Source of the DNA: Patulibacter sp.
GTDB lineage: Bacteria; Actinomycetota; Thermoleophilia; Solirubrobacterales; Solirubrobacteraceae
DNA: 64,000 nt
NCBI RefSeq assembly: GCF_030655195.1
Contig: NZ_JAURWA010000106.1
Location: forward strand, 1 to 64,000
Direction: 5' to 3'
The notes under the pieces were generated by a model, which had not been told where the DNA came from, made no database searches, and saw only the letters and a list, made by a program, of their open reading frames with translations. Position numbers and translations under genes: made by a program. This document shows, in pieces, positions 21,307 through 24,823 of this stretch. Position 1 is the first letter of the stretch. Each line of letters begins with the position of its first letter.

Positions 21307-21987
21307 GTGTTCCGCCGGCGCCCCGAAGAGCCGTTGATCGAAACCGTCCTGATCGAGTCCGGACGTGTTCGTCTGTTCGATCGACACCTCGTCCGTCTCC
21401 GGCGTTCCGGCGCCGCCCCGAAGCAGGTCACCGCCGTTCGGGCGCTCGCGGAGACGTGGCGCCGGACCGCCGGCCGACCCACCGTCGTGCGCTTCGAGGT
21501 CGCCGCCCGCAGCGGCGTGGCCAGCCGCGCGCGGACCCCGCCGTCCCGCGACCCGGTGCGCCTCGCCCTGGTCCCGGGCTTCGACCCGGGGGACGGCCGG
21601 CGCGAGCGGAAGCTGGCCGACCGGACGTGGGCGGAGGAGGCCGAGGCCGCCGCCGCCGCCGCCGGTGCCGACGAGCCGCTGCTCCACGACGCGGCGGGCC
21701 TCCTCGGCGAGACCAGCCGGGCGTCGCTGTTCGTCGTCGACGCGACCGGCCGCATCCGCACCCCCCCGGTCCGCGGCATCCTGCCCGGCGTCACCCGGGA
21801 GTGGGCGATCGGCGCCGCCGGGGCGGAGGAGCACCCGCTCACCGTCGACGACCTCGGCGCCGCCCGCGCCGCGTTCCTCACCACCGCCGCGCGCGGCGTG
21901 GTGCCCGTGACGTCGATCGACGGCCGGCCGCTGGGGAGCGACGACCGCGTCGAGGAGCTCGCGGCGGCCTGGCGCGCCCTGGTCTGA
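21307..21987 (+). CDS. Class IV aminotransferase / aminodeoxychorismate-lyase-like protein
   Basis: A 226-residue PLP-fold protein. The class IV signature is clear: an Arg/Asp-rich start (RLFDRHLVRLRRS), a lysine in ERKLADRTWAEEA at the usual PLP-lysine position, GETSRASLFVVD (the E-x-S-R/N motif) and RGILPGVTREW near residue 157. It is shorter than branched-chain aminotransferases (about 300 or more), closer to PabC/D-amino-acid transaminase-like proteins. The substrate cannot be told. A longer open frame upstream is not used: the GTG at 21307 is placed 6 bases after CACGAT. Confidence 0.75.
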   Translation: MFRRRPEEPLIETVLIESGRVRLFDRHLVRLRRSGAAPKQVTAVRALAETWRRTAGRPTVVRFEVAARSGVASRARTPPSRDPVRLALVPGFDPGDGRRERKLADRTWAEEAEAAAAAAGADEPLLHDAAGLLGETSRASLFVVDATGRIRTPPVRGILPGVTREWAIGAAGAEEHPLTVDDLGAARAAFLTTAARGVVPVTSIDGRPLGSDDRVEELAAAWRALV

Positions 21988-22092
21988 CCCGGGCGACCGG
22001 CGGGTGGTCCGGGCACGCCGCCACCCTCGGACCCCGGGTCGTCGCCGTTCCCGAGCCCCGGGGTCGTCGCCCGCCCCGTCCACCCGGCGCGG

Positions 22093-23301
22093 TCAGCGGG
22101 CCGCCGGGCGCTCCCCCACGTAGGTCGCCCGTGGCCGGAACCGCAGGCGGTGGCGGTACTCCTCCAGACCGTGCGCGACGAGCCCGACGGTCCGCGCCAG
22201 CGCGAAGATCGTCGCCGCGGAGCCGGGGCGCAGGCGCATCGCCGTCGTCAGGCCCGCCAACGCGAGGTCGACGTTCGGGGCCGGCAGCCCGCGGTCGCGG
22301 GCGAGGGCGACGACGTCGGCCACCGCACGGGCTGCCAGAGGGTCGCGCGCGCACCCGCCGACGAGGTCGAGCAGGTGGTCCGCCCGCGGGTCGCGGTCGC
22401 GGTAGACCCGGTGCCCGAAGCCGGCCGGCGGCCCGTCCGCCGAGAGCCGGTCCCCCAGGGCGCGCGCCGGCCCGTCCGGGCCCGCCGCCGCGGTCAGCAT
22501 GCGCTCGACCTCGCTGGACGCCGCCCCGTGCAGCGCCCCGCCGAGCGACCCGAGCCCCGTGAGGACCACCCCGTAGGGATCCGCCCAGGCCGACGCCGCC
22601 ACCCGGGCGGCGAACGTCGATGCGGCCAGCTCGTGGTCGGCCAGCAGGACCAGGGCCGCGTCGAGCGCTTGCAGCTGCGCGGGACCGGGAGCGCGATCGT
22701 CCGGGGCCAGCACCGTCCAGAGCCGCGCGGCGACGCGGTCGTCGACGGGGATCCCCCGGCCCGGGACGGCGTCGACGAACCCCGCCACGACCGTGCGCCC
22801 GGCCCGGCGCACCGCCTCGGGACGACGGTCGGCCCGCAGGGGGTCGCCCGCACGCAGGGTCGCGACGACGACCGGCAGGAGCGCCGGCGGGTCGACGTCC
22901 CGCAACGGGGCGAGGACGGCACGGAGCGTCGAGAGGGCCGCCGGGTCCGCGCGCCAGGGGCCGCGGTCGGGGTCCCCCCACAGCAGCGCGGCGACGCGCT
23001 CGAGGCCGGAGTGCCGGGCCAGGCCGACGGCGTCGTGGCCGCGGTAGGCCAACCGCCCGTCCGGATCCAGGAGCGTCAGCTCGGTGTCGACGACCGTCTC
23101 GACGGCGGGCGAGCGGTCGGTGCGGCGCGCGCGACCGGCCAGCCCTTCGACCGCGGCGCGCGAGAACCGCGTCGCGCGGCGGTCGCTCGAGGGGTCGCGC
23201 TCCAGGAGCCCGCGGCTGACGTAGGCGTAGACCGTCTCGCGCTTGACCCCGAGCCGGCGCGCGGCCTCGGCCACCGTGAGCGTCTCCCCCATGCCGCTCA
23301 T
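22093..23301 (-). CDS. Citrate synthase family protein with N-terminal helix-turn-helix
   Basis: A 402-residue protein. Residues about 6-55 are a MerR/excisionase-type winged helix (LTVAEAARRLGVKRETVYAYVSRGLLE), and the rest is citrate-synthase-like: TELTLLDPDGRLAYRGHDAVGLA, LGGALHGAASSEVERML (active-site His region), FGHRVYRDRDPRADHL (second catalytic His) and C-terminal GLVAHGLEEY. It is divergent from a second citrate synthase at 23377; the 75 bases between them hold a perfect 14-bp palindrome. The plausible reading is a metabolic enzyme or enzyme-like sensor that regulates the pair. The start could also be the in-frame ATG at 23328. Confidence 0.85.
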   Translation of the reverse strand: MSGMGETLTVAEAARRLGVKRETVYAYVSRGLLERDPSSDRRATRFSRAAVEGLAGRARRTDRSPAVETVVDTELTLLDPDGRLAYRGHDAVGLARHSGLERVAALLWGDPDRGPWRADPAALSTLRAVLAPLRDVDPPALLPVVVATLRAGDPLRADRRPEAVRRAGRTVVAGFVDAVPGRGIPVDDRVAARLWTVLAPDDRAPGPAQLQALDAALVLLADHELAASTFAARVAASAWADPYGVVLTGLGSLGGALHGAASSEVERMLTAAAGPDGPARALGDRLSADGPPAGFGHRVYRDRDPRADHLLDLVGGCARDPLAARAVADVVALARDRGLPAPNVDLALAGLTTAMRLRPGSAATIFALARTVGLVAHGLEEYRHRLRFRPRATYVGERPAAR

Positions 23302-23323
23302 GTTGACGTGATCAACGTTGATC
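23302..23323. promoter_or_regulatory. Overlapping palindromes between divergent citrate synthase genes
   Basis: GATCAACGTTGATC (23310-23323) is a perfect 14-bp palindrome. It shares its left half with a spaced inverted repeat, GTTGA-CGTGA-TCAAC (23302-23316), giving three GTTGA/TCAAC half-sites in 22 bases. The A/T-rich half-sites stand out in this GC-rich DNA and abut the start of the HTH-citrate synthase gene. Confidence 0.6.
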
Positions 23324-23376
23324 CGCATCGACGGCCGCAGGACGATCGACGGGACCACCGAACCAGGGAGCACCCG

Positions 23377-24507
23377 ATGGGCACGCAGACGCAGCAGGTA
23401 CGGGAAGGGCTCGAGGGCGTCGTCGCCTTCGCGACCGAGATCGCCGAGCCCGACCGCGACGGCGGCGCGCTGCGCTACCGCGGGGTCGATCTGCGCGAGC
23501 TCGCAGGCGTGGTCCCGTTCGAGCGGGTCTGGGGGCTCCTCGTCGACGGGCGCCCCGACCGCGAGCTGGCCCCCGCGGGCACCCATCCGCTCGCGTTCCG
23601 GACCGGGGACGCGCGGGTCGACGTGCAGGCCGCGATCGCGGCGCTGGCCCCCGAGTGGGGCCTGCGACCGCTCGTCGACCTGAGCCCCGAGGTCGCCCGC
23701 GACCAGCTCGCGCGCGTCGCCTCGACCACCCTGTCGTTCGTCGCCCAGGCCGCACGCCGGGAGGGCATGGGGCTCGGCGGCGCCGCCCGGACGACCGGCA
23801 GGCCCCCGGTCCCGCAGGCCCGGATCGACGAGGGACGCACGCTCGCCGAGCGCTTCCTGATCCGTTGGCGCGGCGAGGCGGACCCCGCGGAGACCCGGGC
23901 GATCGACGCCTACTGGACGACCGCGGCGGAGCACGGCATGAACGCGTCGACGTTCGCCGCCCGCGTGGTCGCCTCGACCGGGGCGGACGTCGCCGCGTCG
24001 CTGAGCGCGGCGGTCGGGGCGCTGTCCGGGCCGCTCCACGGCGGGGCGCCGGCCCGCGTCCTGCGGATGCTCGACGAGGTCGAGCGCGAGGGCGACGCCG
24101 ACCGCTACGTCGCCGGGGTCCTCGGGCGCGGCGAGCGGATCATGGGCTTCGGCCACCGCGTCTACCGGGCCGAGGACCCGCGTGCCCGGGCGCTCCGGCA
24201 GGTCGCCGAGGAGCTCGGCTCGCCGCGCGTGCAGGTCGCCCTGGACCTGGAGCGGGCCGCCCTGTCGGCGCTCGCGGCGGCCAAGCCCGACCGGGTGCTC
24301 GCCACGAACGTCGAGTTCTGGTCCGCGGTCGTCCTGGACCACGCGCGCGTGCCGCAGGACCTGTTCCTCCCGCTGTTCGTCTGCGCCCGCACCGCCGGCT
24401 GGTCCGCCCACGTCCTCGAGCAGCGACGGACCGGGCGGCTGATCCGCCCCTCGGCGGTCTACGCGGGCGCTCCCCCGCGTCCGTGGGCGCAGGTGACCGG
24501 CGCCTGA
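23377..24507 (+). CDS. Citrate synthase (or 2-methylcitrate synthase)
   Basis: A 376-residue citrate synthase condensing acetyl-CoA (or propionyl-CoA) with oxaloacetate. Key parts: RYRGVDLRELA at the start, HGMNASTFAARVVASTGAD, SGPLHGGAPARVLRML (active-site His), MGFGHRVYRAEDPRA (second His) and SAHVLEQRRTGRLIRPSAVYAG at the C-terminus. It is the shorter bacterial type II-like form with no N-terminal extension. AGGGAG seven bases before the ATG is a Shine-Dalgarno sequence, in contrast with the leaderless neighbours. Regulation by the palindromes at 23302-23323 is likely, since they lie 54 bases upstream. Confidence 0.92.
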   Translation: MGTQTQQVREGLEGVVAFATEIAEPDRDGGALRYRGVDLRELAGVVPFERVWGLLVDGRPDRELAPAGTHPLAFRTGDARVDVQAAIAALAPEWGLRPLVDLSPEVARDQLARVASTTLSFVAQAARREGMGLGGAARTTGRPPVPQARIDEGRTLAERFLIRWRGEADPAETRAIDAYWTTAAEHGMNASTFAARVVASTGADVAASLSAAVGALSGPLHGGAPARVLRMLDEVEREGDADRYVAGVLGRGERIMGFGHRVYRAEDPRARALRQVAEELGSPRVQVALDLERAALSALAAAKPDRVLATNVEFWSAVVLDHARVPQDLFLPLFVCARTAGWSAHVLEQRRTGRLIRPSAVYAGAPPRPWAQVTGA

Positions 24508-24526
24508 GCGGGCGGGGCGCCCCCGC

Positions 24527-24823
24527 TCACCCCAGGTGCTCGCCCGGGGGCAGCGGCAGCCGTGCGGCGGCCAGGTCCACCCGGCCCGCCGGCGTCAGCG
24601 GGACGCCCTCCCGACGCAGGAGCGCGGCCTGCCGGTCGGCCTGGGTCAGGCTGCCGTCGGCACGTACGACGCGGTGCCACGGCACGTCGGCACCGGACGT
24701 GGCGAGGACGCGACCGACGAGCCGCGGCGCCGCCGGGTCGAGGTCGCCATAGGTGCGGACGAACCCCTCCGGGATCGCCCGGACGCCCTCCAGGATGCGC
24801 TGGGCCCGCGCGTCGTCCGCCAC
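24527..24823 (-). CDS. Alkyltransferase-like (ATL) DNA-binding protein
   Basis: A 98-residue protein of the Ogt/MGMT DNA-binding domain family. The active-site motif of O6-alkylguanine methyltransferases, PCHRV, appears as PWHRVV, so the acceptor cysteine is replaced by tryptophan. Such ATL proteins bind O6-alkylguanine in DNA and flag it for nucleotide-excision repair instead of removing the alkyl group. The helix-turn-helix segment (GDLDPAAPRLVGRVLATSGADVPWHRVV) and the DNA-contact arginine are present. The GTG start is 7 bases after a minus-strand GAGGAT; an ATG three codons upstream is the alternative. Confidence 0.85.
   Translation of the reverse strand: MADDARAQRILEGVRAIPEGFVRTYGDLDPAAPRLVGRVLATSGADVPWHRVVRADGSLTQADRQAALLRREGVPLTPAGRVDLAAARLPLPPGEHLG

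What the first reader, a model, noticed from the sequence alone, without database searches (positions are those of the whole stretch)
23302..23376. Self-regulated citrate synthase pair: HTH-citrate synthase divergent from a normal citrate synthase across a perfect palindrome
The minus-strand enzyme carries its own MerR-like DNA-binding domain, and the 75-base divergent gap holds GATCAACGTTGATC plus an overlapping GTTGA/TCAAC repeat, A/T-rich elements in this GC-rich region. The simplest model is a citrate-synthase-fold protein that senses a CoA ester or oxaloacetate and controls both genes. The fusion exists in other actinobacteria, but the operator and role are, as far as I know, not described.
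Basis: partly seen in the sequence, partly recalled or inferred. Interest (0 to 1): 0.66.

Follow-up and report, generated by a model that had tools for sequence, protein, structure and literature searches.

The report
Citrate synthase acting as gene switch
A citrate-synthase-like protein that carries its own DNA-binding domain sits back to back with a citrate synthase gene, and the short DNA sequence between them recurs at the same place in distantly related bacteria, so the protein very probably switches that gene and its own on and off in response to the substrates of citrate synthesis.

Summary
GATCAACGTTGATC lies at 23310-23323 between an HTH_17-citrate synthase fusion (HTH-CS, minus) and a CitA-type citrate synthase (plus). 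Perfect 14-bp palindromes are common in this GC-rich window, so symmetry alone is no evidence; conservation is. The real element is longer, TCAAYRTTGAT-N3-7-TCAAY, and Patulibacter minatonensis has it unchanged. In 396 actinomycetote genomes the exact element is in 31 of 41 with HTH-CS and 13 of 355 without. It occurs once in the window's genome. Its first TCAA is the -35 of the partner's promoter, with a -10-like hexamer 17-18 bases on in 46 of 47 loci. The HTH recognition helix (T-x-Y-x-Y-x-SRG) is kept in 62 of 62 proteins. Where the CS partner is replaced, the element faces an unrelated HMGL-type acyl-CoA condensing enzyme (two kinds, 28% identical). HTH-CS keeps the oxaloacetate-binding and catalytic residues (one exception); CS partners carry Asp-to-Glu. 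Best reading: a local, self-controlling, citrate-synthase-fold transcription factor, probably a repressor gated by oxaloacetate/acyl-CoA. Binding, sign and ligand are untested. No description was found in the open-access library.

The parts
22093..23301 (-). HTH-CS: winged-HTH (MerR superfamily, HTH_17) fused to a citrate synthase domain, 402 aa; proposed regulator (upstream in-frame start at 23328, downstream at 23292)
   Evidence: closest relative 77% identical, in P. minatonensis
23146..23280 (-). HTH_17 domain of HTH-CS
   Evidence: AF2 model of residues 1-71, pLDDT 76, best Foldseek matches are MerR-superfamily domains (NmlR, RacA, BldC, MtaN), all with E > 0.001
23209..23235 (-). Recognition-helix segment TVYAYVSRG, kept as T-x-Y-x-Y-x-SRG in 62 of 62 HTH-CS proteins
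22129..23094 (-). Citrate synthase domain with equivalents of pig H238, H274, H320, R329, D375, R401, R421 all present
23302..23321 (-). Proposed operator TCAACGTTGATCACGTCAAC (three half-sites)
23310..23323 (.).
23318..23323 (+). Predicted -35 (TTGATC) of the CitA promoter, inside the palindrome
   Evidence: same spacing in P. minatonensis
23341..23346 (+). Predicted -10 (GACGAT) of the CitA promoter, 17 bases after the -35
   Evidence: identical GACGAT at the same spacing in L035
23366..23370 (+). Likely ribosome-binding site GGGAG of the CitA gene
   Evidence: read
23377..24507 (+). Partner gene: CitA-type citrate synthase, 376 aa, catalytic Asp replaced by Glu (NVEFW)

Best explanation
HTH-CS is a local transcription factor made from a citrate synthase. 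Its citrate-synthase fold (dimeric, inferred from the family) presents two MerR-superfamily winged HTHs to the array TCAAY-RTTGA-N-TCAAY between the two genes. The first half-site is the -35 of the partner's promoter, so binding most simply blocks RNA polymerase there and also at its own start: a repressor of the divergent citrate-forming enzyme and of itself. Oxaloacetate and/or acyl-CoA, which the intact active site should bind, would close the citrate-synthase fold and change DNA affinity, matching the partner's synthesis to its substrates. Shown by comparison: the operator, its conservation and position, the conserved recognition helix, the conserved active site, partner exchange with the operator kept. 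Inferred: binding, repression rather than activation, the ligand, and whether HTH-CS still catalyses.
For: (1) Element and HTH-CS go together: 31/41 genomes with HTH-CS against 13/355 without; 6/396 for the reversed control (Fisher about 3e-27, genomes not independent). At least one of the 13 (G198) has the element next to a partner CS at a contig end. (2) Further genomes: 27 of 37 HTH-CS loci have the relaxed element. (3) In P. minatonensis the 20-base element plus the ATG is unchanged. (4) Partner promoter: TTGA of the element followed at 17-18 bases by NANNNT in 46 of 47 loci, almost none at 13-16 or 19. (5) Recognition helix kept in 62 of 62 at 35-48% overall identity outside Patulibacter. 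(6) Partner exchange: HMGL-type enzymes, not homologous to citrate synthase, face HTH-CS across the same element in six genomes of five families; the two kinds are 28% identical and need two changes on the HTH-CS tree. Patulibacter's partner belongs to the CitA clade, not to the usual partner clades. (7) Active-site residues kept in 35 of 35, except one H320-to-Met. (8) Usually one site per genome. (9) In S. coelicolor the SCO5831/SCO5832 intergene is bound by MtrA at TTGACTTAACTGTCCA and both genes are higher late in a mtrA mutant (PMC12323332); a similar sequence overlaps the predicted partner -10 in the Streptomyces loci, so the pair is a regulated unit.
Against: No binding or expression data for HTH-CS. 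Eight genomes of one genus (f93 g297) keep only TTGAT-N-TCAAY; G176, G681 and G146 have degenerate elements although the partner is present. Part of the conservation could be that of a promoter. The HTH-CS promoter could not be placed outside family f20. The full-length AF2 model is poor (pLDDT 57.5), so domain geometry is unknown. Two Streptomyces genomes keep HTH-CS with neither partner nor element (L104, L105), so it may do something else there.
Confidence: 0.72

Rival explanations
1. HTH-CS is a local activator: bound next to the -35 it recruits polymerase (or, MerR-like, reshapes the spacer) when substrates are plentiful.
For: MerR-superfamily DNA-binding domain; in family f20 the third half-site lies in the -35/-10 spacer of the HTH-CS promoter.
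Against: The partner -35/-10 elements are near consensus (TTGACA in most Streptomyces, spacing 17-18), which needs no activator, and the element covers the -35 itself.
Confidence: 0.2
2. Trigger enzyme: HTH-CS is a working citrate (or 2-methylcitrate) synthase that also regulates, the DNA-bound state depending on catalytic turnover, in the manner of PutA.
For: All catalytic and oxaloacetate residues conserved, including Asp, while the partners have Glu.
Against: Conserved binding residues are also expected of a pure sensor; one member has lost H320 (L098). Compatible with the main reading, differing only in whether turnover occurs.
Confidence: 0.35
3. The element is only a pair of back-to-back -35 hexamers of a divergent promoter and has nothing to do with the HTH domain.
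For: TTGA units do serve as the partner's predicted -35.
Against: The third half-site TCAAY, the fixed core across lineages, the conserved recognition helix and the tie to HTH-CS even without a CS partner (L100 with no partner, L108 with a broken one, HMGL loci) are not explained.
Confidence: 0.08
4. HTH-CS and the partner CS form a mixed dimer, the partner tuning the DNA binding of HTH-CS.
For: Both are citrate synthases, a dimeric family, and adjacent in most genomes.
Against: In six genomes the partner is an unrelated HMGL enzyme that cannot join a citrate-synthase dimer, yet the element stays.
Confidence: 0.08

Closest known systems
SCO5831/SCO5832 (citA3/citA4) of Streptomyces coelicolor
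   Same: Two adjacent putative citrate synthase genes sharing one intergenic regulatory region; its MtrA site resembles a sequence in the Streptomyces loci seen here. The equivalence is inferred from that sequence and the arrangement; the S. coelicolor locus itself was not found in the sample.
   Different: The literature found treats both as citrate synthases under MtrA; the passages read mention no HTH domain and no own operator (PMC12323332).
Bacillus subtilis CitR/citA (from my own knowledge)
   Same: A divergently transcribed regulator controlling a minor citrate synthase.
   Different: CitR is a LysR-type protein with a different sensor domain; here the sensor domain is itself a citrate synthase.
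Trigger enzymes such as PutA, NadR and BirA (from my own knowledge)
   Same: Enzyme fold plus DNA-binding domain, regulating genes of its own pathway.
   Different: None of these uses the citrate synthase fold.
Caulobacter CitA moonlighting
   Same: A citrate synthase with a regulatory role independent of catalysis (PMC7083601).
   Different: Cell-cycle checkpoint; no DNA-binding domain reported in the passages read.
MerR-superfamily DNA-binding domains (BldC, NmlR, RacA, MtaN, CarH)
   Same: Predicted winged-HTH fold; CarH also joins a MerR-type domain to a cofactor-binding sensor related to enzymes (own knowledge).
   Different: Different sensor domain and a different operator.

Membership tests
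Citrate synthase fold (PF00285) | Profile match over cut-off and conserved active-site residues | tested here: met
   182 and 301 bits against 27; residues
Active citrate synthase (HTH-CS) | Synthase activity | not testable with these tools
   catalytic His, His, Asp conserved, no assay possible
CitA-type citrate synthase, NF009005 (partner) | Profile above its curated cut-off; closest solved structures | tested here: met
   522 bits against 332; best PDB matches 8s9d and relatives, 458 bits
HTH_17 / MerR superfamily DNA-binding domain | Profile match over cut-off and winged-HTH fold | tested here: met
   HTH_17 34.8 bits against 27; Foldseek matches to MerR-type domains, best E 0.005
MerR family proper (PF00376) | MerR profile above cut-off | tested here: not met
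   21.9 bits, cut-off 28.2
MerR family proper (PF00376) | Operator between a -35 and -10 separated by 19-20 bases | tested here: not met
   the element covers the predicted -35; partner spacers are 17-18
Local autoregulator with a divergent target | Conserved operator between regulator and target, few other sites in the genome | tested here: met
Local autoregulator with a divergent target | Regulator binds the operator and alters both promoters | not testable with these tools
   needs EMSA and expression assays
Re-citrate synthase (HMGL partners) | Makes citrate from oxaloacetate and acetyl-CoA | tested here: inconclusive
   PF00682 match, best NCBIfam model is NifV homocitrate synthase, below its cut-off; the host genomes also hold ordinary citrate synthases

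The most novel reading that the evidence does not exclude
HTH-CS founds a phylum-wide class of citrate-synthase-fold transcription factors that still bind, and perhaps turn over, oxaloacetate and acyl-CoA, and that keep one conserved operator while the controlled enzyme is exchanged between unrelated folds doing similar acyl-CoA condensation.
Probability: 0.4. Interest if true: 0.72.

Novelty: new variant of a known kind. Interest (0 to 1): 0.58.

Why it matters
Central-metabolism control in actinomycetes is known mostly through global regulators (GlnR, MtrA, DasR, CRP). A dedicated, self-contained switch whose sensor is the enzyme fold itself would be a direct reader of oxaloacetate or acetyl-CoA, metabolites for which few bacterial transcription factors are known. 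It occurs in Streptomyces, where extra citrate synthase copies lack a clear role, so it is testable in laboratory strains, and it could serve as a biosensor. The exchange of the controlled enzyme for an unrelated one at the same operator is a natural experiment on what the regulator senses.

Tried and rejected
Palindromicity as evidence: rejected, 30 perfect 14-mers in the window. A multi-gene regulon: no further site in the window's genome; a second site in G171 lies before a CoA-transferase family III gene but is single and unconfirmed. Re-citrate synthase by absence of other citrate synthases: the HMGL genomes all have further PF00285 genes. Sigma-70 scan of 23200-23450 found nothing at its strict threshold; spacing statistics over many loci were used instead. 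Full-length AF2 on a 4-sequence alignment: poor. HTH domain against PDB by sequence: no match. Locating S. coelicolor by its published MtrA site in 199 Streptomyces genomes: no match. Literature searches found no paper on the fusion as a regulator.

Full report
Observation. The gap 23302-23376 holds GATCAACGTTGATC at 23310-23323 and an overlapping GTTGA-N5-TCAAC. The minus gene encodes an HTH_17 domain followed by a citrate synthase domain; the plus gene is a CitA-type citrate synthase. A second Patulibacter, P. minatonensis, has the same pair in the same gene context.

Is it more than chance? As a palindrome, no: 30 perfect 14-mers occur in the window and 12-31 in Markov sequences. As a conserved element, yes. 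P. minatonensis shares TCAACGTTGATCACGTCAACATG exactly. Upstream of HTH-CS genes across the phylum the same array recurs, TCAAYRTTGAT-N3-7-TCAAY. In one and the same sample of 396 genomes, 31 of 41 with HTH-CS have the exact pattern against 13 of 355 without (reversed control 6 of 396). Genomes are related, so the p-value (about 3e-27) is only indicative. One of the 13 (G198) is a contig that ends before HTH-CS, with the element in front of the partner. In G134 the element is beside the partner, with a beta-lactamase-like gene inserted before HTH-CS. Most HTH-CS genomes without the exact pattern have near variants; two Streptomyces (L104, L105) have neither element nor partner. In a second set of 37 HTH-CS loci 27 have the relaxed element; eight of the ten without belong to one genus that keeps the second and third half-sites.

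Anatomy. Read from the partner's side, the first TCAA is the TTGA of a -35 hexamer. A NANNNT hexamer follows at 17 or 18 bases in 46 of 47 loci, and hardly ever at 13-16 or 19. In the window this is TTGATC (23318-23323), 17 bases, GACGAT (23341-23346), then GGGAG and ATG 23377; P. minatonensis has GACGAT at the same place. In Streptomyces the -35 is mostly TTGACA. For HTH-CS itself a promoter with the second TTGA as -35 is visible only in family f20; in Patulibacter its ATG 23301 directly follows the element, so a leaderless transcript is possible but not shown. The HTH recognition segment is T-x-Y-x-Y-x-SRG in 62 of 62 proteins, an invariant run in a set at 35-48% identity to the window protein outside Patulibacter. 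The isolated HTH domain is predicted as a MerR-type winged HTH (pLDDT 76), and most of its best structural matches are MerR-superfamily domains, several bound to DNA, though none has E below 0.001.

Sensor domain. HTH-CS proteins form one clade (100/100) apart from partner CS, CitA and GltA. They keep the residues equivalent to pig H238, H274, H320, R329, D375, R401 and R421 in 35 of 35, one having Met for H320. The partners and CitA all have Glu at D375 (22 of 22 and 13 of 13). So the fused protein has the more canonical active site. Residue equivalence rests on my knowledge of the pig enzyme and on the alignment.

Partner exchange. Most partners are citrate synthases of two clades; in Patulibacter the partner is a CitA, while the genome has another CitA and a GltA elsewhere. 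In six genomes of five families the divergent gene is instead an HMGL-like enzyme (isopropylmalate/homocitrate/citramalate/Re-citrate synthase superfamily), of two kinds 28% identical, with the element in place. Parsimony on the HTH-CS tree asks for two changes. Both classes condense an acyl-CoA with a 2-oxoacid, which points to the sensed metabolites. Whether the HMGL enzymes make citrate is open.

Mobility. In G003, whose flanking genes are 86-100% identical to the window's, and in G002, the neighbours are adjacent without the pair (junction); only two of eight genomes of the genus have HTH-CS. The pair is a discrete, dispensable two-gene cassette; gain and loss cannot be told apart here.

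Mechanism proposed. A dimeric citrate-synthase-fold repressor on TCAAY-RTTGA-N-TCAAY, covering the partner's -35 and its own start, released or retained by oxaloacetate/acyl-CoA through the open-closed motion known for citrate synthases (own knowledge). Steps shown by comparison: element, position, co-occurrence, conserved helix and active site, partner exchange. Steps inferred: binding, dimer geometry, sign, ligand, catalysis.

Literature. In S. coelicolor, MtrA binds the SCO5831/SCO5832 intergene at TTGACTTAACTGTCCA and both genes are higher in the mtrA mutant at late times (PMC12323332). The Streptomyces loci have TTGATTCGACTGTCCA overlapping the predicted partner -10. GlnR acts on citA and citA4 in Saccharopolyspora erythraea (PMC10704036). 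No text found describes the HTH or the operator; only open-access papers were searchable.

Verdict. A real, conserved regulatory cassette; operator and local regulator well supported, sensing and sign unproven.

Noticed in passing
window 21987-24527; L181, L183: Natural empty sites: in close relatives G003 and G002 the aminotransferase-IV and MGMT-like genes flanking the pair are adjacent, without HTH-CS and CitA.
   Followed up: yes
L101:3231-3249 (G171): A second exact copy of the operator pattern lies upstream of a CoA-transferase family III gene, a possible second target in that genome.
   Followed up: partly
L096:3367-4677, L103:1465-2691, L111:2126-3400, also L162, L163, L164: HMGL-like acyl-CoA condensing enzymes of two kinds sit in the partner position; their substrate is unknown and could be oxaloacetate (Re-citrate synthase).
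   Followed up: partly
L131-L133, L135, L137-L139, L156 (f93 g297): One genus has lost the first half-site but keeps TTGAT-N-TCAAY with a conserved GTAGATAT(A/G) in front of it; the recognition mode may have shifted.
   Followed up: no
L098 (G176): The only HTH-CS with Met in place of the catalytic H320 equivalent also has a degenerate element.
   Followed up: no
L104, L105 (G248, G083): Two Streptomyces genomes keep an intact HTH-CS with neither partner nor element upstream.
   Followed up: partly
L185:390-2924 (own genome, contig C171): A large helicase-like ORF contains the only other TCAACGTTGA of the genome, inside coding sequence; it could belong to a defence system.
   Followed up: no
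own genome C77 (L003): A second CitA-type citrate synthase, 67% identical to the partner, without the element anywhere near (the pattern occurs once in the genome).
   Followed up: partly
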